64,000 bases of DNA from Fibrobacter sp. (GCA_024399065.1 JAKSIB010000006.1:1-64000); one strand, 5' to 3'; shown: positions 33,085 through 43,709, counted from the first letter of the stretch. Translations and numbers: made by a program. The notes: a model not told the origin generated them from the sequence alone.

Positions 33085-33223
33085 ATTTCTGCAAAAATAT
33101 GTGATATTTGCACGTTTTCGCCAATTATTCACATTTTGTTTACAGAAAAAACCTTTTTTTTAACTATTCTTTGCAAAAATAATTGGCATTTTTGAAAAGA
33201 AAAGAATAGATTTCAACCCGGTG

Positions 33224-33257
33224 TGGCATTTCAAAAAGGCCGGTCTTTTTGCTATGC
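33224..33257 (+). promoter_or_regulatory. Hairpin in the leader of the fibro-slime gene
   Basis: GGCAT (33227 on) pairs with ATGCC, and AAAAAG with CTTTTT, closing a GCCGGT loop. A CCGG in the loop can also pair with a CCGG just upstream (near 33219), giving a possible pseudoknot. It lies 25-60 nt before the start codons. It matches no riboswitch class I know. Confidence 0.4.
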
Positions 33258-33295
33258 CGTTGTTGGAAGGTTTTACATCGATGGAAAAGAGAATT

Positions 33296-36200
33296 ATGAA
33301 AAACACGAAAAACACCTTGCTTAAGTGGTTGCTTGGTACCAGCTTGCTCTTTGCTGGTGTGCAGAGCGTCTGCGCTGCATGTCTTGGTACCTTGCATTTC
33401 CAGAGACCTGATGATTGGAAGGTTGCTTATGTTACAATAAACACCGCCGTTCAGATTCCGGCCTCCACGCTCAATGCGACCACTGGTTTCTACGACTATG
33501 ATTTGTCCAATACAAAGGCTCAAACCCAGGAACTTTACTTCGGCTTGCAGACAGCTCCTCCTCTGTCAGATCAGCAGGGCGGTTCGATTAATTATATTTT
33601 GGCCAATACGTGGAATGGCACAAACTCTAACGATCCAAATTTCATCGTGAATAACCGTAATACTCTCGGTATTAAGTGCCCGGGTGAAGGTAAGGATGTT
33701 TGGGTTATGGAAAACCCGAAGAAGCCTAATACCACCTTGGTTTCCTATACCAAGCCGGACCTTCATTACCTCTACGTTCTTGTTCCGGATGAAGAAGAAT
33801 GGAAGTCTACTCCTCCGAAGGTTAGTCTTGACGGCTCCTTCGAAAATCGTAAGGCTATGAGTGTTGACACCCGCATGTGCGGTTGGTACTACTATGTCTG
33901 GATGAACGAAGAAGTTCCGGGCAGCATTCTTATTGTCCGTGATGACGACCCTGATTTGGAAGAAGCCATCGGCTTTGAAGGTGCTGGCGCATCTACCACC
34001 ACTCCCATTCCGGCTGACATGCTTTTCTCTGCCTATGGCGAACGCCTTTACTTTGTGACCTCTCCTGAAGTTGCAGAAGAATATCCTGAATCTATGGCTG
34101 GTGAATTGTTCTCTGACAAGGATCCTGGCATTGAAGGTAACTGTAAGTATAGCTTGGCTGCACTCCTCTACGATACAGATGCCTCTATGCATGGCGCTTT
34201 CACCTGTGATGCTTACCCGGCTGTGGCTTCTAACGGTTGCTATAATGCTGGATCCAAGTATAACTACCCGGGTGCTGGTGCTGCAAATACGGTTCCCTGT
34301 ATTGGTGTGACCAAGGGTATTGTTGCTGACATCTTGAACAAGGAAACAAAAAAGCCGACCTACAATGCTGCTAGTGGCTGCTTTGTTAGCCAGGAAGCTT
34401 TCGATGTGATGTTCAAGGAAACTCCGGGCGTGAACTTTAAGCATTGCCGTAACGTTGAGTTTGGCTTGCAGAAGGACGGTATGTGGGAATATGATAGCTA
34501 TAACGAACCCACAGGTGCCTTCACTATCTTGAACGATCTTGCTGACTCTGTCAAGGCTGGCGTTTGCACTGACTATTGCGAAGTTGCTGCGACTCCGCGT
34601 GCTGGTATGGGTAACGTGTCCTATGGTACTGGTGCTTTGCAAATCCAGTTTACCAATGGTGAAGAAGTTATTCGGGAAGAACCTGAAGGTATTTCCGCTG
34701 CAGCTACTAAGTTGCTTGGCTTTGTGAAGGACTGGTCTGCCATTGAACCGAACAGTGGTCTTCCGTATATTGACCTCTATCCGGTTGCTGCAGGTGAATT
34801 CGGTGACGGTAAGAATCCGAACGTTTATGATAACTCCACTTGGGATAAGCGTACCAAAGGCATGAACAACCAGATGTTCTGCTTCGAATCCCATGCAAAC
34901 TTTGTCTATCGCCCGGGCATGCAGTTCTCCTTCCGTGGTGACGATGACATTTGGGTTTATATCGATAACAAGCTGGCCGTGGACCTTGGCGGTACCCACC
35001 TTGCTGCTCCGGGTTATGTGAACTTGGATGATTTCACTGGTGCTTCCGGTAAGCTTGCTGAAAACACCCAGTATGATATTGATATCTTCTTCTGCGACCG
35101 TCGTACCGACATGAGTAACGTTCGTATCAAGACCAATATGTACATTGTGCAGAACACCTCCATTACCGCAAAGCCGGTTAAGGAAAAGGGTAACTCGGCT
35201 GTTACTTCTTATGCCATGTGCTATAACAGATCTGGTGACGGTTCCTGCGAAGCTATTGCTTCTGGTTCCAATGATGCTGTGCAGTGCTGTGGTAAGGAAT
35301 TGCTCGGTGGCAAGGAAGGCTGCGAAGGCCTTACCCTGGAATACTACCTTGTTGCCGGTTCTGCCTGGAATGATTCTGCCAAGGCTCTTGCTTCTGGTGC
35401 CGTTCACTACAGTGGTATTGACCTGACCAACCCCATTTCTCCCAAGATTGATAAGAAGGCTATTGATCTTCCCTCTGGTCGTTGGAGCTTGTACCTCAAG
35501 ATTGGCAATGAAAAGAAGAAGGTTGCTTCTTTCCGTAAGGCCGGTGAAGTTGACGTTGTCTATGGCAATGCTGTGGCTGTCTATATCGATGAAGAAACTG
35601 AAAAGGAAATTTCCTCCAAGACCAAGTACTACAACTACACCAAGTCTGCTATGGCTGGTGGTGGCAAGAACCCGGTCGCAACCGACCTCGTTCCGATGTA
35701 CGTTTCCGCAGTTGCATCTGAAAAGCGCGAAGACAGAATCGTGATGCAGCCGGATGACTCCAAGGGCTTTACCTATAGCCTTGATATTCCTAGCGGTATG
35801 AAGGTCTATAAGAAGAATGCAAGCGGTGGTTACGACGAAATCAGCTCCACCACTTCCAACACAATTGATGATACTGGTGTTGATACCATCTACGTGTTTG
35901 TCTCCTCCTTGATGATGGATACAAAGAAGGGCAACCCGCAGTCCTACAGCATCAAGGTTGTCAACAGACCGACTCCGGCTGTTATTTCCTTCTACGTTCC
36001 GCGTCTTGCCTTTGTTGATACCTTGTACAAGGATTCTGCAACAAACAAGTGGGTGTTCAGCACCAACTTCCGCACTCAGGGTGATACCATTGATGGCAAG
36101 ATTGAAGAACGTTTGACCGGTATGGGTTACAACTTCTTCCTGGTTGCTCTTAAGCCCAATGACGCTGGCAAGTACGATATCTGTGATGATTGTAACCTCA

Positions 36201-38074
36201 AGTTCAGCACCAAGGCGGGTACTTCTCCGGGTCTCGAAGCAATCGATACTACTCAGCTGAAGATTGTTAACGGTGGTGCTGTTTTCCAGGTTCGCTCCTT
36301 GAGACAGTATCGCATTGCTGATAACAACCCGGCTAAGCTCGTTGTTGTTGGCCCGACTTCCTTGAGTAATGCTCAGTATACCCCGATCTTCTTTGCTGAA
36401 CCGCCTTGCCCGATTCCGGCATTTGCTGACGTGTTCGATGTTGAAGGTGCTAAGTCTTCTATTGATATGAAGATTCCTGGTCCGTACTTCAGCACGGAAA
36501 CCGTATATCAGGATGGTATCGCTGACATGGTGGATGTGTACTACAACCGCCTGGTTCCGAAGGACTCTGTCCCGCTGGCAATCTGTATCGAATGGGAAAC
36601 TTCTTCTGCTGAAAAGTTCTATCCGGCAAAGGATTCTCTCTATTCTACCAGAGATCCGGAAGACTACTACATTCTCTGTAACGCAGTTGTTACCACCGAT
36701 GACATGGAAGTCACCAATTGTGACCAGACTATGACCGATGGTGAAGATGGCTCTGTCGTAACGGATTCTGCAACTGGCAAGCCGGTTATGTACTGTGATC
36801 AGCGCGTACGTCTTAAGAATCTTGCTTTGTCCAAGCTTCCGAAGACTGTTGGCCCGGGTAAGGTTACTTCCTTCTCTGCCTATAGAGAAAAGAAGGGCGG
36901 CCTCGTTAAGCAGGGCTTTACTTCTGAAGTTATGGTTGATCGTATGGCTCCGATTCCGGTCTCTGCACGAGTCCTTACTTCCAAGAACTCCAAGGGCCAG
37001 TCTTCTGACCAGGATGTTATGACCATTATCATGTCTGAACCGGTTAGAATCGTTGACGATGTTGATAAGTTCAATGTCTTTGACTTCTACATTACCGGTG
37101 GTCACTGGGATGATTCTCAGCGCTTTGTCTCTCCGACCGAAGGCACCACAAGTACAGTTACCCCGTTGATGGCTCCGACTCCCAGCAATGATACCATTAA
37201 GGTTATCTATAAGATTGTGATCGATGAATCCAATGGTATGGCTAAGAACATGACTCCGAAGAAGGATGACTACCTGCGTCTTAGCGGTAATGTGGAAAAG
37301 AAGCTCTTCTTCTGGAGTGACTTGACTGAAACCAACGTGGCTGGTGCTGATAGTATCCGTAAGGTTGTTGCTCTTAAGAACAGCGATGATATCTACCTGA
37401 AGGAAGAATACTACTGGAATGCTCCGACGGGCTATGCAGAAACTATGCGTCTGCCTTCTCCGTGGGTTGAAATTGAAGGTGATGCTGTGAACAACATTAC
37501 CGTGAACAAGTTCGCATACACCAGTTACGCAAATGATGCAAAGACTCCGATTGTTGTCAACGCATACAACAAGCGTAGAACCTTCAATGAAATCATTGAT
37601 AAGGAAGGTGGTATCCCGGGTCACTTTGTCCAGGCTGACTTGATGTCTTACTACAACAAGTTGTCTGCAGAAGATCGTGCTAACCTTGATCTTGACCAGG
37701 TGTACTTCTACTACAAGGTTGAATACTTCACTAACCTTGGTAACTATGTTGCTGGTACAAGCGGAAAGATCTACTGTAAGGATGAAACTAATAAGAAGTT
37801 GAATGGTGGCAGAACCTTCTTTGGTGAAGAATCTGAAAACAAGACCTGTATCGAAGCAGGTACCAACCGTAACTTCTACATTGGCTGGAATATGCTTTCT
37901 GATGAAGGCCGCCAGGTTGGTACCGGCGTCTACATCACCAAGGTTCAGACTTATGTGAAGATTGGCCGCAAGAAGGATGGAAAGAAGGATCTTACTACTA
38001 CCATTGGTGTGAAGAAGTCCGACAATTCCAAGATTTACTCTCCCAAGGGTGAAATCTTCCCTGAACAGTTCTAG
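33296..38074 (+). CDS. Giant fibro-slime domain surface protein
   Basis: A 1592-residue secreted protein. The start at 33296 (GGAAAAGAG 4 nt upstream) gives a signal peptide ending in VCAA; ATG 33281 with GGAAGG is nearly as likely. A PA14-like fibro-slime domain (about residues 474-619) shows WDKRTKGMNNQMFCFESHA, FRGDDDIWVYIDNKLAVDLG and DIFFCDRR. Next (about 638-899) is the module shared with the lipoprotein at 29.7 kb. The C-terminal part (about 1450-1575) resembles FlgD-type Ig domains (IGWNMLSDEGRQVGTGVYI). Proteins with this domain are linked to cellulose adhesion in Fibrobacter. Adhesin or slime matrix role is inferred. Confidence 0.9.
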   Translation: MKNTKNTLLKWLLGTSLLFAGVQSVCAACLGTLHFQRPDDWKVAYVTINTAVQIPASTLNATTGFYDYDLSNTKAQTQELYFGLQTAPPLSDQQGGSINYILANTWNGTNSNDPNFIVNNRNTLGIKCPGEGKDVWVMENPKKPNTTLVSYTKPDLHYLYVLVPDEEEWKSTPPKVSLDGSFENRKAMSVDTRMCGWYYYVWMNEEVPGSILIVRDDDPDLEEAIGFEGAGASTTTPIPADMLFSAYGERLYFVTSPEVAEEYPESMAGELFSDKDPGIEGNCKYSLAALLYDTDASMHGAFTCDAYPAVASNGCYNAGSKYNYPGAGAANTVPCIGVTKGIVADILNKETKKPTYNAASGCFVSQEAFDVMFKETPGVNFKHCRNVEFGLQKDGMWEYDSYNEPTGAFTILNDLADSVKAGVCTDYCEVAATPRAGMGNVSYGTGALQIQFTNGEEVIREEPEGISAAATKLLGFVKDWSAIEPNSGLPYIDLYPVAAGEFGDGKNPNVYDNSTWDKRTKGMNNQMFCFESHANFVYRPGMQFSFRGDDDIWVYIDNKLAVDLGGTHLAAPGYVNLDDFTGASGKLAENTQYDIDIFFCDRRTDMSNVRIKTNMYIVQNTSITAKPVKEKGNSAVTSYAMCYNRSGDGSCEAIASGSNDAVQCCGKELLGGKEGCEGLTLEYYLVAGSAWNDSAKALASGAVHYSGIDLTNPISPKIDKKAIDLPSGRWSLYLKIGNEKKKVASFRKAGEVDVVYGNAVAVYIDEETEKEISSKTKYYNYTKSAMAGGGKNPVATDLVPMYVSAVASEKREDRIVMQPDDSKGFTYSLDIPSGMKVYKKNASGGYDEISSTTSNTIDDTGVDTIYVFVSSLMMDTKKGNPQSYSIKVVNRPTPAVISFYVPRLAFVDTLYKDSATNKWVFSTNFRTQGDTIDGKIEERLTGMGYNFFLVALKPNDAGKYDICDDCNLKFSTKAGTSPGLEAIDTTQLKIVNGGAVFQVRSLRQYRIADNNPAKLVVVGPTSLSNAQYTPIFFAEPPCPIPAFADVFDVEGAKSSIDMKIPGPYFSTETVYQDGIADMVDVYYNRLVPKDSVPLAICIEWETSSAEKFYPAKDSLYSTRDPEDYYILCNAVVTTDDMEVTNCDQTMTDGEDGSVVTDSATGKPVMYCDQRVRLKNLALSKLPKTVGPGKVTSFSAYREKKGGLVKQGFTSEVMVDRMAPIPVSARVLTSKNSKGQSSDQDVMTIIMSEPVRIVDDVDKFNVFDFYITGGHWDDSQRFVSPTEGTTSTVTPLMAPTPSNDTIKVIYKIVIDESNGMAKNMTPKKDDYLRLSGNVEKKLFFWSDLTETNVAGADSIRKVVALKNSDDIYLKEEYYWNAPTGYAETMRLPSPWVEIEGDAVNNITVNKFAYTSYANDAKTPIVVNAYNKRRTFNEIIDKEGGIPGHFVQADLMSYYNKLSAEDRANLDLDQVYFYYKVEYFTNLGNYVAGTSGKIYCKDETNKKLNGGRTFFGEESENKTCIEAGTNRNFYIGWNMLSDEGRQVGTGVYITKVQTYVKIGRKKDGKKDLTTTIGVKKSDNSKIYSPKGEIFPEQF

Positions 38075-38091
38075 CATCTAGTTGCTAAATA

Positions 38092-38642: not shown

Positions 38643-41600
38643 TTATTCTAGCAAACCCAGAGCCTGCTTGAGGTTGTGCTCGTTCAAGGACTGGGGCATC
38701 AAGGCTCGTTCTTCCGGAGATACGTAGACCAGCTTTCGTTCCAAGTCCGGACGGGAAGAACGATCGCGGGGCTGTACTTCCATAGGAGTAAGGGAGTAGT
38801 AGAACGGACCGGTCTTCACAAAGCGCTTCTTTTGGAGGCCCTGATTGATTGCGTCAGTCAAAGCCTTTTCAAGCATGGGACCTGCTCGGTCTACATGGTG
38901 AAGTTCTAGCACGCGGTGCTTAAGGATGTCTTCATGAATCGGGGCTTCGTGGTCCACGTAGAACTTGAGCTGCGTAATGAGGGCGGCTGCGGGAAGTTCT
39001 GCGATAGGCTTGTCATGAGGTGTGCCTTCGATTTTCGGATGCTGTACTGCATAGGGCACCACGGCAGTGCCTTCTCCCGCCATCTTTTCTGCAACATCGT
39101 CGTCATCTTCTGCTTCGGTTTCTGCAGAAGGCGGCGGAGCGACGCTTTGTTCGATAGCGATTGTTGCAATCATGTGTCCGACTTCGTCGGCGTTCATCAT
39201 GTACCAGAAGGGCAACCACAGATGGAGAACCTTCCATCCCAGTCTTTTCAGGAGGATCGGACGGATGCAGGTCTTGTCTTCAACAGAGTCGCAGAAACGT
39301 TCAACGGTACAGTCGTCTTCAATGAGGGCGAGGAATCGGTTTGCATTGTTGGCGTCAACAACCACAGGTCCAATGGAAATTCCTCCGCGGTTGAAGGATT
39401 CTTCAATCTGGATGTTTTCCTTTTCCAATGCGCTGAGAACCTGCGACTTGATGGCAGATTCTGCGGGATGACCTTCGCTCTTGACAGTGAAGTTCTTTTC
39501 TTGCAGGTAAGAAATCCATTCCCAGAACAGGGATGTCCTGGAGGTTCCCTTCTTGGACATGTCTGATTCGGAAATGAAAACCCTGGTTTCAACCTTTGCC
39601 AACGTCGTGCAAACGGAAATCTTTCTGTCGTTAGCCAAACCGCTTGTATTTTCAGATTCGGCACAGACGAAAATTACATCACGGAAACGGTCAATGGCTC
39701 GTTCCGGAGTTTTAATAAAGTAACGGATGTCCTGGTTTTGCTGGTCAAAGAATCTTGCTGCGCCGGAACCGGAAGCGAGCATGGCTCTAATGGCAGCTTC
39801 GATTTCGTGACAGGTGGACTGATGGAAAGCGATGATGCCGAGGGTCTGGCTAGGATTCTTTTCGGCATGACGAATTGCTGCCTGGGCAATTGTCATTACC
39901 TTGTCCATAACAGTCTTGAAGCGGATTCCCTTGAACTCAGAACGGTTCGGTGCAGGGAATTGCTTGATGCTGTTATTGTAAATTCTGTCGTTTGCAAATC
40001 CAATCAAGGACGCATCGGCGTATTGGCTGGAAAGCCACAGTTCTCTTGTGGGGACACCCTGACGGAGGATGGATGACAAAATGCTTTCTACGAAGAACGG
40101 CGTGTGCTTGAGCGGGTTCTCCTGATAAGCGTCGTATGGCAGCATCTCGTGGTTCGGGTTGTGCGGGTCGCCGATGAAGACAACCTTTTTCGAACTAAGG
40201 ATGCTGGGGAGGGCTTCTACGACGGTGATGCAATCAGCGTCGAGAAGGATTGTCAAATCAAACTTACTGTCAACGGGAAGGGCCAGCGAGCCGTTTACGT
40301 TGACCACAGTTAGCAATTCCGGACTCTGTTCGACGGCGTTGTGGAGTTCCTTGAAATTTGCGTTACTGAATTTATCCAAAAGGTCGCGGTAGGCGCTGTT
40401 CTTCTTGTAGCGAGCCTTGGGATTCAAGGAGAACAAGTCCGGGCAGCTACGTGTGGCAGCCTGGATTTGAACACCGGACCAATGATGAACGAACGCCTGA
40501 AGAATGTCCTTGTTGACATTGGCGGTATCTTCAACGAAGGATACCAGTCCAGGACAGTTGTAGTTTTCAAGTTCGTTGAACAAGGATGTCAATTCCAAAT
40601 GGACGTCCAGGTTGTCCCAGTTTTCACTCCAGGACTTGATGGTGTCCAACCACTTGTTAATGTCCAAGCTGTCCAGCGGAGTTTCCAGTTTCATGTCCTT
40701 GGAAATCTGGCGGATGGACTTCTGTAGATTCTTTACGGAACCGGAAATGGTTTCAAAGTCGTCGAGAATTGGCTTGATGTTGTGCCACTGTTCCAGGATC
40801 TGGAGCAGCAAGTCAAGACGGGGGTTGTCTTCGTACTTCTTGCGGAATTCAAAGACGTACTGAATCTTCTTGTGGAGTTCCACCCAGTTAGAACGTTCGT
40901 ACTGCCAGTCCTTGCCCAACAGATGGTTGCCGAGCACGGCACTTTCCTTGTAGGCTTTCTTGTTTTCCTGCAGTTCCAGCAAAGTATCGATCAAATCGAG
41001 CAACTGGATGTCAGAGGAAACGTCCTTGGGATTGCGGATGACCTGAAGCAACTGCTTCTTGGAAGAACGGTATCTGTCGGAAAGGCCTTTCAAGGTAGCC
41101 TTCTGGCTTTCTGCAAATTCGTCTCGGGCTGCAAGAACGTTTGTGTCTACTGCTTCGTCGGTATAGATTTCAGAGGTCTGACGACGGTAGCGGACCCACT
41201 TGTCTCCAGCTTCGGAAAGTTCAAGGAGGGTATCCTTGTAGGCTGCCCAATTGCTAGAACGGAGTTCCCAATCTTCAAAGTCAGGAGTGTCCTGGTCGAA
41301 GTTGTCTTGAATCAGTTCAAGAATGTCAGACAAGCTCGCAAGGAAGATTCCGGTGGGGAACAGACCTGCATTTTTTAAAAGCTTGATGGTCGTGTCTAGC
41401 TTGGAAACGTTTTCCGCGGCAAGCTTCAGTTCCTCGGAAATGGAAGCTTTCTTTTCGGCGGTGAGGCTAGGTACCTTTACGCTTTGGAACGCTTGGCGTG
41501 CTTCAAAACCCTTCTTGTTGAAGTACAGGTCGGAAATCTTTTCCAGGTCAGCCTTCAGTGCAAGATAGCTGGCGTAGTTCAGTTCGCTGACTCCCTGGAA

Positions 41601-42758
41601 AATGGAATCGGGGAACTTGCGCTTTGGTGCCTTGGCTGCGATGAATTCTTTCAGCAAGTCTGCCAGAAGAACGCCGGACGGTTGAATGGGGTTGTTGACG
41701 GTTTCGTAATAGTCAAGGAAATCCTTTCGTGCTTTTCTTACATCGTTTGCCAGGGCGTCGCGATCGGCGTCGGCGAATGTACGGAAAGGAGGCTTCCATG
41801 CGTTCTTGAATGCGTTTGCGGAAACTGCACGGCGAGTGACCACCAAAACTTTCTTTTTCTGTGCGACTGCTTCTGCAACGATATTGGCTGCCACCTTCAT
41901 CTTTTCGGTGCCGGGCAGAGCCTGGATTGCATAGGCGGGGGCTCTGTCGTCGAGAGCGTCCATGGTGACTTTCGTAGTGTGAGAGTCAGTCTGATACAGG
42001 AAGTGGTGATCTGCCGGGGAGTAGACGTGGTCGAATGCGTCGTTTTCAAACAAGGATTCTGTTACGTCGTAGCCGTCGCCATTGAGGAATGGCTGGATTG
42101 CGGCGTTAGATTCAATCTTCTTGTCTGTCCAGCCGATTTCGTAACGCTTCTTGAAAAGAAGGCGGCTGGTGTGGAAGAATCCGAGGCAAAGACCGTGACG
42201 GGTGAACTTCCAGTTGCGTTCTCCTGCAATGGCCTTCTCGAAGAGGGAGAAATACTGCAGGATGCTAAACTTGCCGTTGGTAATAGCGTCTTCAGCCTTG
42301 GGCAAGGCAATCTTGTCCTTGAGGCGTTCTCTGAGAACGACGTTTTCAATGGGCTGACGGTTGGCAAGAGTTAAAGTCTTCTTGTTTACATCGGCGTCTA
42401 CGGGAATCAAAAGGCTGGGGGCAAGGGCATTGCCGTCCCATTTCAAGAAACCGAGAACGAGGTATAAATCAGATTCTCCGAAATCTTCGTACTTTTCGCG
42501 AAGAACTGCGGACATGGAGTCTTCCATGGCCATCTTCTGCTGGGCGGTAAAATTTGCAGAAATCGGGAAAAAGGAATCCAGGGGCAAAGGACCTTCTGAT
42601 TGTTTCCATTTCTCATAGAATAAATCTCCCGCTTCCATAATCAGGGGAGACTGGAAGTCTGCCTTGGAAGAGAAGATGAGCAAACGATCTTTAGAATCGA
42701 AAAGAGCTGCTTCTTGACGAATGTTGGATACGATAGAAGATGATAATGCCTGAGACAT
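38643..42758 (-). CDS. DUF4011-type SF1 helicase / Vsr-like nuclease homologue with degraded active sites
   Basis: A 1371-residue protein laid out like DUF4011-helicase-MTES_1575-DUF3320 proteins, but every catalytic motif I can align is altered. Motif I (GPPGTGKS) reads ALPGTEKM near residue 280. Motif II (DEAS) reads DADC near 837. Motif III GDPKQ reads GDPHN. HYRS reads QYAD. The motif V and VI equivalents (about 1025-1055) lack the Gln and Arg. The nuclease region (about 1097-1190) keeps RLGWKVLHLWLPFWYM but loses the Asp and the first Glu. A DUF3320-like winged helix ends the protein. A long helical insert fills residues 400-780. The frame is fully open. TATATT ends 6 nt before the ATG. 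Confidence 0.75.
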   Translation of the reverse strand: MSQALSSSIVSNIRQEAALFDSKDRLLIFSSKADFQSPLIMEAGDLFYEKWKQSEGPLPLDSFFPISANFTAQQKMAMEDSMSAVLREKYEDFGESDLYLVLGFLKWDGNALAPSLLIPVDADVNKKTLTLANRQPIENVVLRERLKDKIALPKAEDAITNGKFSILQYFSLFEKAIAGERNWKFTRHGLCLGFFHTSRLLFKKRYEIGWTDKKIESNAAIQPFLNGDGYDVTESLFENDAFDHVYSPADHHFLYQTDSHTTKVTMDALDDRAPAYAIQALPGTEKMKVAANIVAEAVAQKKKVLVVTRRAVSANAFKNAWKPPFRTFADADRDALANDVRKARKDFLDYYETVNNPIQPSGVLLADLLKEFIAAKAPKRKFPDSIFQGVSELNYASYLALKADLEKISDLYFNKKGFEARQAFQSVKVPSLTAEKKASISEELKLAAENVSKLDTTIKLLKNAGLFPTGIFLASLSDILELIQDNFDQDTPDFEDWELRSSNWAAYKDTLLELSEAGDKWVRYRRQTSEIYTDEAVDTNVLAARDEFAESQKATLKGLSDRYRSSKKQLLQVIRNPKDVSSDIQLLDLIDTLLELQENKKAYKESAVLGNHLLGKDWQYERSNWVELHKKIQYVFEFRKKYEDNPRLDLLLQILEQWHNIKPILDDFETISGSVKNLQKSIRQISKDMKLETPLDSLDINKWLDTIKSWSENWDNLDVHLELTSLFNELENYNCPGLVSFVEDTANVNKDILQAFVHHWSGVQIQAATRSCPDLFSLNPKARYKKNSAYRDLLDKFSNANFKELHNAVEQSPELLTVVNVNGSLALPVDSKFDLTILLDADCITVVEALPSILSSKKVVFIGDPHNPNHEMLPYDAYQENPLKHTPFFVESILSSILRQGVPTRELWLSSQYADASLIGFANDRIYNNSIKQFPAPNRSEFKGIRFKTVMDKVMTIAQAAIRHAEKNPSQTLGIIAFHQSTCHEIEAAIRAMLASGSGAARFFDQQNQDIRYFIKTPERAIDRFRDVIFVCAESENTSGLANDRKISVCTTLAKVETRVFISESDMSKKGTSRTSLFWEWISYLQEKNFTVKSEGHPAESAIKSQVLSALEKENIQIEESFNRGGISIGPVVVDANNANRFLALIEDDCTVERFCDSVEDKTCIRPILLKRLGWKVLHLWLPFWYMMNADEVGHMIATIAIEQSVAPPPSAETEAEDDDDVAEKMAGEGTAVVPYAVQHPKIEGTPHDKPIAELPAAALITQLKFYVDHEAPIHEDILKHRVLELHHVDRAGPMLEKALTDAINQGLQKKRFVKTGPFYYSLTPMEVQPRDRSSRPDLERKLVYVSPEERALMPQSLNEHNLKQALGLLE

Positions 42759-42800: not shown

Positions 42801-43709
42801 TCACAGAGATTCGGCGATTTCGCCTATAGCTTCGTTTATGGAGGTGGGGCAATCTTCAGAATGTATACCGGCCTTGAAAAGAACTCGTCCCAAAAGTTCC
42901 TCTGGGGAGATTCCTTCTTCCTTGTCCTGCCTGATGCTGTGGGCTAATTCACGTTTAGAAAGCTTTTTTCCGGTTGAGTCTACGATGAGGGCGTGGTGAA
43001 GGTAAAGGGGCTGCTTGTAGGGCTTGCCGAGAACGTCGCAAATGGATCCGGAAAGGGCGATTTGTCGGGCGGTGGAATTGCGAATGTCCTCTCCGCGGAT
43101 GATGTGGGTGATGTCCTGGTCAATGTCATCGACGCAGACGGCAAATTGGTAGGTCCAGCATCTTTCTCGGTCGCGGATGGGAAAGTCTCCGCATTGGTTT
43201 GCGGGATTTTCTGCGAACGGGCCAAGGCGATAGTCATTCCAGTTTATTACTTTGTCTGCAAGTTTAAATCGCAGGTTGTGCGGGGGAAGACTGCCTTCCG
43301 TCTCTTTTTCGCCTTCAGCCTTTAACGTCTCTGCTAAGCAACGGCACTTTCCTTGATAGATAATTTCGCCGGTTTCGCTTTTGGGGTTTTCTGCTTCCAA
43401 TTGCTTTCTGCTGCAGGTACAGGGGTAGACAAGGTCTTTTTCGATTAGTTTTTGAAGAACGCCTTGGTAAATTGCTGTTCGTTCGCTTTGAATACTTTCG
43501 CTATGGTGTTTAAAGCCCATCCATTCCAGGTCTTCTCGGATGCCATCGATATAGGCTTGACGAGTTCGGCCTCTATCATGGTCTTCGATTCGCAAATGGA
43601 TATGAAGGTCCCATTTTTTTGCTGCGGCCCACACATAAAGAGCCGAAAGCAGGTGGCCTTCGTGCAGGTATCCGGTGGGGCTGGGGGCGAATCTGATTTT
43701 TCCTGTCAT
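42801..43709 (-). CDS. gluQ: Glutamyl-queuosine tRNA(Asp) synthetase
   Basis: A 302-residue truncated glutamyl-tRNA synthetase without the anticodon-binding domain, which attaches glutamate to queuosine in tRNA-Asp. Class I motifs: HEGH (the HIGH box) at residues 16-19 and KLSKR near 249. Zinc ligands in CTCSRKQ and YQGKCRC are kept, as in GluQ. RFAPSPTGYLHEGH is diagnostic of the Glu family. With queC in the same window this supports an active queuosine pathway. It is divergent from the M16-like gene. Confidence 0.93.
   Translation of the reverse strand: MTGKIRFAPSPTGYLHEGHLLSALYVWAAAKKWDLHIHLRIEDHDRGRTRQAYIDGIREDLEWMGFKHHSESIQSERTAIYQGVLQKLIEKDLVYPCTCSRKQLEAENPKSETGEIIYQGKCRCLAETLKAEGEKETEGSLPPHNLRFKLADKVINWNDYRLGPFAENPANQCGDFPIRDRERCWTYQFAVCVDDIDQDITHIIRGEDIRNSTARQIALSGSICDVLGKPYKQPLYLHHALIVDSTGKKLSKRELAHSIRQDKEEGISPEELLGRVLFKAGIHSEDCPTSINEAIGEIAESL

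What the first reader, a model, noticed from the sequence alone, without database searches (positions are those of the whole stretch)
38643..42758. Full-length pseudo-helicase/nuclease of the DUF4011 class
The 1371-codon frame is intact, yet the P-loop, the DEAx motif, the conserved Arg and Gln of later helicase motifs and the nuclease Asp/Glu are all changed. Random decay would have broken the frame, so the protein is probably selected for a non-catalytic role. Active members of this class include a single-gene anti-phage system (hhe, as I recall it). A catalytically dead version could be a sensor, decoy, regulator or structural DNA/RNA-binding protein.
Basis: partly seen in the sequence, partly recalled or inferred. 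Interest (0 to 1): 0.75.

Follow-up and report, generated by a model that had tools for sequence, protein, structure and literature searches.

The report
Conserved dead helicase-nuclease in Fibrobacteraceae
A large protein descended from a phage-defence helicase-nuclease has lost the residues needed to burn ATP and to cut DNA, yet a whole family of gut bacteria has kept it intact at the same chromosomal spot, which suggests it was repurposed for a non-catalytic job.

Summary
The 1371-codon frame (38643-42758) is real; it lies on the minus strand. It encodes DUF4011 + UPF1-like SF1 helicase core + Vsr-like nuclease + DUF3320 winged helix. Model of residues 1-1200: mean pLDDT 89; best match IGHMBP2/UPF1, Z 25.7. 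In 79 distinct orthologues none has a working Walker A. The Walker B Asp, helicase arginine finger and first nuclease Asp are lost in every readable row.

The gene is present in 78 of 80 genomes of the genus and in six further Fibrobacteraceae genera. It is almost always directly downstream of gluQRS, in a housekeeping neighbourhood. dN/dS is 0.03-0.16. The rpoB tree groups the sampled carrier genera, and the gene tree places all dead copies in one clade apart from active DUF4011 proteins. Active relatives occur sporadically at other loci in a few Fibrobacter genomes (one a true ProA).

So an active ProA/Hhe-like enzyme died catalytically once, near the base of these genera, and was then kept: a conserved, probably domesticated pseudoenzyme. 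Role (inferred): static nucleic-acid-binding scaffold or regulator. Residual sensing in defence is not excluded. New variant of a known kind.

The parts
38643..42758 (-). Pseudo-helicase/nuclease gene, 1371 aa
   Evidence: Open frame; orthologues in 78 of 80 genus genomes; dN/dS 0.03-0.16
42024..42758 (-). DUF4011 domain, residues 1-245 (part of the UPF1-like core in the model)
   Evidence: Pfam 22.1 bits against cut-off 22.2; aligned to IGHMBP2/UPF1 from residue 3
41898..41921 (-). Degenerate Walker A, residues 280-287 ALPGTEKM (GPPGTGKS in active homologues)
40299..41768 (-). Long helical insert, residues 331-820, shared with active PDC-S37/ProA proteins
   Evidence: Best PADLOC PDC-S37 stretch is 332-807; all-helical in the model
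40224..40244 (-). Degenerate Walker B, residues 839-845 LDADCIT (active DEASQ); the Mg-binding Asp has become Leu839
   Evidence: L839 78/79, D840 79/79
40008..40034 (-). Degenerate motif IV, residues 909-917 (active HYRS replaced)
   Evidence: HYRS in 0 of 79
39675..39704 (-). Degenerate motif V, residues 1019-1028 (active VQGDERD; Q lost, R1026 and D1027 kept)
39591..39608 (-). Degenerate motif VI, residues 1051-1056 TTLAKV; arginine finger has become Leu1053
   Evidence: Leu or His in 78/78
39159..39470 (-). Vsr-like PD-(D/E)xK nuclease domain, residues 1097-1200; catalytic Asp has become Gly1130; E1147 and D1149 kept
   Evidence: Pfam MTES_1575 32.6 bits; fold matches I-Bth0305I Z 10.3 and Vsr Z 8.3; residues
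38646..39053 (-). DUF3320 winged-helix domain and C-terminal tail, residues 1236-1371
   Evidence: Pfam 24.7 bits against 25; winged-helix matches Z 6-7; lowest dN/dS of the domains in most pairs
42801..43709 (-). gluQRS, tRNA glutamyl-Q(34) synthetase, directly upstream on the same strand, 42-bp gap: conserved neighbour, not shown to be a functional partner
   Evidence: NCBIfam GluQRS 4e-66; adjacent in nearly all orthologous loci

Best explanation
It is a probably domesticated pseudoenzyme. An active DUF4011 anti-phage helicase-nuclease of the ProA/PDC-S37 lineage lost ATPase and nuclease chemistry once, near the base of the Fibrobacteraceae genera that carry it, and has since been inherited vertically as a single-copy gene beside gluQRS. 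Shown: motif loss, retained (predicted) fold, synteny, distribution, purifying selection. Inferred: the protein works without an ATP-driven cycle, as a static nucleic-acid-binding scaffold or regulator, using the retained UPF1-like core, the dead Vsr-like domain and the well-conserved winged helix to hold nucleic acid and/or a partner protein, much as Deinococcus PriA or RecC keep binding roles without catalysis. I put the pseudoenzyme-and-conserved part at about 0.9, the housekeeping nucleic-acid scaffold role at about 0.45.
For: No orthologue of 79 has a canonical Walker A, and the Walker B Asp, arginine finger and first nuclease Asp are lost in all readable rows, while eight active homologues keep the helicase motifs and the nuclease Asp. 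Present in 78 of 80 genus genomes and six further genera, absent from g15, g16, g17 and g21. Carriers in the rpoB tree form one clade, 100/100; dead copies form one clade, 100/100. Fixed locus: SPOR gene, this gene, gluQRS. Whole-gene dN/dS 0.03-0.16, no relaxed domain. Fold kept: pLDDT 89.4 over 1200 residues, UPF1/IGHMBP2 Z 24.9-25.7, Vsr-like nuclease Z 8-10 and winged helix. 42 positions are fixed in dead copies but not in active ones, several at former catalytic sites (L839, D840), which fits new constraint rather than decay. The neighbourhood is housekeeping, not a defence island. Precedent for a bacterial pseudohelicase: PMC4504706.
Against: No biochemistry. Nuclease E1147, D1149 and R1166 are invariant, more than a pure scaffold obviously needs. 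The protein is acidic overall (pI about 5.6), and so are its active relatives. One g24 genome (G165, 94% complete) keeps gluQRS but lacks the gene, and two genus copies are interrupted (G117 frameshift, G028 one TAG), so it is not strictly essential or those are assembly errors. The 42 newly fixed positions are counted on related sequences.
Confidence: 0.6

Rival explanations
1. It still works in phage defence, as a non-catalytic sensor or adaptor: it recognises phage nucleic acid or protein and passes the signal to another effector.
For: Its nearest characterised relatives are anti-phage proteins; the genus average of defence systems is high (PMC11834463).
Against: Vertical core inheritance at one fixed housekeeping locus and presence in 78 of 80 genomes are unlike the patchy pattern of the active paralogues; no effector gene is conserved beside it; low dN/dS with no fast-evolving domain.
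Confidence: 0.2
2. It keeps a residual or altered nuclease activity built on E1147, D1149, D1161 and R1166, with the helicase part dead.
For: Those residues are kept in 75-77 of 77 readable rows; the Glu is even lost in some ProA-type proteins with intact helicase motifs; the PD-(D/E)xK/Vsr-like fold is intact.
Against: The first Asp, a metal ligand in this fold (general knowledge), is lost in all rows and replaced by unrelated residues; the His after the ExD motif is lost. PF18741 scores below its cut-off.
Confidence: 0.12
3. It is an accessory factor of queuosine tRNA modification or translation, working with the neighbouring gluQRS.
For: gluQRS is directly upstream on the same strand in nearly all orthologous loci.
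Against: G160 keeps the gene with no gluQRS beside it or detected elsewhere, G165 keeps gluQRS without the gene, and g15, g16 and g17 have gluQRS-like genes without it. Neighbours that never rearranged would give the same picture.
Confidence: 0.06
4. It is a decaying relic with no function, caught before the frame broke.
For: One genome lacks it and two copies are interrupted.
Against: dN/dS 0.03-0.16 over pairs with dS up to about 2; open frames across the genus and in further genera; confident fold.
Confidence: 0.02

Closest known systems
ProA anti-phage protein (NCBIfam NF058533) / PADLOC candidate PDC-S37
   Same: Whole-length homology including the helical insert and C-terminal part (PDC-S37 404 bits; ProA 288.6 bits); same domain order
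   Different: Score far under ProA's cut-off of 1500; about 500 aa shorter than ProA; ATPase and nuclease motifs lost; fixed core gene instead of sporadic
Hhe (NCBIfam NF042953)
   Same: DUF4011, SF1 helicase and Vsr-like nuclease domains
   Different: Weaker match (108.7 bits against cut-off 2000); Hhe of Klebsiella keeps all the motifs compared
Deinococcus radiodurans PriA (PMC4504706)
   Same: Helicase fold kept with lost motifs across a lineage; a named bacterial pseudohelicase
   Different: A different helicase family, no nuclease domain; its DNA binding was measured, ours was not
RecC of RecBCD (from general knowledge)
   Same: Works like: inactive helicase and inactive nuclease folds in one protein used for binding
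   Different: An analogue only; this genome has its own RecBCD cluster

Membership tests
Anti-phage ProA (NF058533) | Score over curated cut-off 1500 bits | tested here: not met
   288.6 bits; a Fibrobacter ProA (L208) scores 2043
Anti-phage ProA (NF058533) | Intact Walker A/B and arginine finger | tested here: not met
Anti-phage Hhe (NF042953) | Score over curated cut-off 2000 bits | tested here: not met
   108.7 bits
PADLOC PDC-S37 | Match to the PADLOC model | tested here: inconclusive
   3e-121, 404.5 bits, three stretches; no curated cut-off shown. Active relative L040 scores 1407 bits
UPF1-like SF1 helicases | Fold of the helicase core | tested here: met
   IGHMBP2 Z 25.7 over 457 residues, UPF1 Z 24.9, on a predicted model
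UPF1-like SF1 helicases | Catalytic motifs I, II, IV, V, VI | tested here: not met
UPF1-like SF1 helicases | ATPase and unwinding activity | not testable with these tools
   Needs purified protein
Vsr-like / MTES_1575 nuclease (PF18741) | Fold | tested here: met
   I-Bth0305I Z 10.3, Vsr Z 8.3, on a predicted model
Vsr-like / MTES_1575 nuclease (PF18741) | First catalytic Asp | tested here: not met
   Lost in 77 of 77; kept in 8 of 8 active homologues
Pseudoenzyme (pseudohelicase) | Catalytic residues lost but fold and purifying selection kept across a lineage | tested here: met
Pseudoenzyme (pseudohelicase) | Measured lack of activity | not testable with these tools
   Needs assays

The most novel reading that the evidence does not exclude
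A phage-defence helicase-nuclease was converted, by loss of both catalytic activities, into a core housekeeping component of a bacterial family: an independent parallel to RecC-like use of dead helicase and nuclease folds as a nucleic-acid-recognition scaffold, here possibly tied to transcription, repair or RNA metabolism.
Probability: 0.35. Interest if true: 0.8.

Novelty: new variant of a known kind. Interest (0 to 1): 0.58.

Why it matters
It shows a defence enzyme family giving rise to a conserved dead protein in a whole bacterial family, so defence genes can be domesticated rather than only gained and lost. It gives a defined set of changed residues to test. It also warns that profile-based defence surveys may count a core non-catalytic gene as a defence candidate: this protein matches a PADLOC model strongly, and a rumen survey that used PADLOC ranked Fibrobacterota among the phyla richest in defence systems (PMC11834463). 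Whether this gene was counted there was not checked.

Tried and rejected
Decoy or dominant negative for an active paralogue: only a few Fibrobacter genomes (G006, G033, G132 examined; G150 not) hold one. Replacement for a missing RecC: this genome has a recC-recB-recD cluster. Obligate gluQRS partner: counter-examples in G160, G165, g15-g17. Decaying gene: dN/dS. Solved-structure search by sequence gave nothing significant. Plasmid search gave DUF4011 relatives only at about 23-25% identity; the five fetched have intact motifs. Literature searches for DUF4011 with DUF3320, PDC-S37, and gluQRS with Fibrobacter found no paper; ProA as an anti-phage protein was not found in the held library. Foldseek alone on the C-terminal model gave no match under E 0.001. 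Similarity of the winged helix to the RNA polymerase delta subunit is one of many tied matches and was not pursued. Promoter scan: no excess over shuffles.

Full report
Observation. The frame named in the finding is real but lies on the minus strand: 38643-42758, 1371 codons, no stop. Pfam places DUF4011 (86-146), the MTES_1575 nuclease (1105-1200) and DUF3320 (1268-1295) just below their curated cut-offs. PADLOC gives PDC-S37 3e-121 and Hhe 3.3e-17. NCBIfam gives ProA 8.9e-86 and Hhe 1.6e-31, both far below cut-off. The nearest characterised relative is therefore ProA/PDC-S37 rather than Hhe.

Distribution. A BLAST of 60 relatives found the gene in all 36 further genomes of the same genus then sampled and in none outside it. 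The genome-contig scan names the genus as Fibrobacter. A family-model search found related frames in other genera, and a profile search confirmed genera g18, g19, g20, g22, g23 and two of three g24 genomes, with none in g15, g16, g21 and only a fragment of an active paralogue in g17. Over the whole class, 78 of 80 genus genomes match; the two that do not are 65% and 71% complete. G028 has one TAG, G117 is split by a frameshift, and G015 and G123 are partial.

Synteny. In the genus the order is SPOR gene, this gene, gluQRS, with gluQRS upstream on the same strand. gluQRS stays adjacent in g18, g19, g22, g23 and g24; the g20 genome has lost it. The rest of the window is housekeeping: alaS, azlC, a SpoU methylase, mlaD, a PEP-utilising enzyme, a transglycosylase and a fibro-slime protein. 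No defence island is visible.

Motifs. Eight active homologues (Vibrio, Hymenobacter, Salinibacter, Klebsiella Hhe, Bacteroides and three Fibrobacter paralogues) all read G-P-P-G-T/S-G-K-S, DEASQ, HYRS, VQGD and S/T-R-A/S, and keep the first nuclease Asp. 'Active' here means motif-intact; activity was not measured. In 79 distinct orthologues of the window gene: no PPG[TS]GK[ST]; position 285 (Gly in active proteins) is E, D, A, S, Q, F, N or K; Lys286 is kept in 61 and is Trp in 10; the Walker B Asp is Leu in 78 and Thr in one; the Walker B Glu position is Asp in 79; the arginine finger is Leu in 69 and His in 9; the first nuclease Asp is lost in all 77 readable rows; E1147, D1149, R1166, W1175 and W1181 are kept in all 77.

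Selection and constraint. Fifteen pairs give whole-gene dN/dS of 0.028-0.157, with no relaxed domain; the C-terminal part is lowest in most pairs. dS is high in several pairs, so single values are rough. Of 141 columns invariant in the eight active proteins, 86 are lost in the dead ones, mostly in the two RecA-like domains; 42 columns are newly fixed in the dead ones, among them L839 and D840. These counts use related sequences and are descriptive.

Origin. In an rpoB tree the 12 sampled carrier genomes and the non-carrier G165 form one clade, 100/100, apart from g17, g21 and outgroups; g22 and g16 had no rpoB match, and g15 only a fragment that was left out. In the protein tree the 20 dead copies form one clade, 100/100, separated by long stems from the active ones; inside it g24 sits differently from rpoB. 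The simplest history is one loss of catalysis before these genera split, then vertical descent, with loss or non-detection in G165. Whether the active ancestor came by transfer is not shown.

Fold. Residues 1-1200 were modelled with mean pLDDT 89.4 and pTM 0.74. VIA-align 2 puts IGHMBP2 (Z 25.7, 457 residues, 4.1 A) and UPF1 (Z 24.9) first, spanning residues 3-1090. Residues 1080-1371 (pLDDT 81) match the I-Bth0305I and Vsr nucleases (Z 10.3 and 8.3) and many winged helices (Z 6-7). The fold is therefore kept although the chemistry is lost. All structural statements rest on predictions.

Mechanism. Shown by computation: lost catalytic residues, kept fold, kept frame, kept locus, purifying selection. 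Inferred: no ATP-driven cycle and no ordinary metal-dependent cleavage; a binding role. I favour a static nucleic-acid scaffold or regulator because the helicase core and winged helix are nucleic-acid-binding folds and because known pseudohelicases keep binding (D. radiodurans PriA, PMC4504706). A remaining defence-sensor role is the strongest rival. The invariant E1147/D1149/R1166 are the main loose end: they may be structural, or mark a changed nuclease site.

Comparison. It fails the curated cut-offs of ProA and Hhe and their catalytic motifs, so it is not filed as either; it is a dead, vertically inherited branch of the same superfamily. RecC is an analogue only, and this genome has RecBCD.

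Verdict. Novelty: new variant of a known kind. Interest 0.58, limited by the unknown role.

Noticed in passing
G165 (L139) and G160 (L064, L204): G165 keeps gluQRS but lacks the pseudo-helicase gene; G160 keeps the gene but has no adjacent or detected gluQRS. Useful natural separations of the two neighbours.
   Followed up: partly
L040/L207 (G033), L041/L208 (G132), L042/L209 (G006): Rare DUF4011 proteins with intact helicase motifs and first nuclease Asp in Fibrobacter at unrelated loci; L208 passes the ProA cut-off. G150 may hold a fourth.
   Followed up: partly
G117 and G028 orthologues: One apparent frameshift near residue 220 (G117) and one in-frame TAG (G028) in otherwise full-length copies; real loss or assembly error was not decided.
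   Followed up: no
L204 9278-9835, L205 3214-3780, L206 9533-10087: A small, probably exported protein with an 'ILHD[DN]GRWEYY' motif sits next to or near the gluQRS/pseudo-helicase pair in g20, g24 and g19.
   Followed up: no
window 33221-38074: 1617-aa fibro-slime domain protein next to the SPOR gene, with a 1503-codon open frame on the opposite strand (33566-38077), probably a codon-usage effect.
   Followed up: no
L201 (G000 contig C24): A recC-recB-recD cluster in the window's genome; all three score under the curated NCBIfam cut-offs, so it is divergent.
   Followed up: partly
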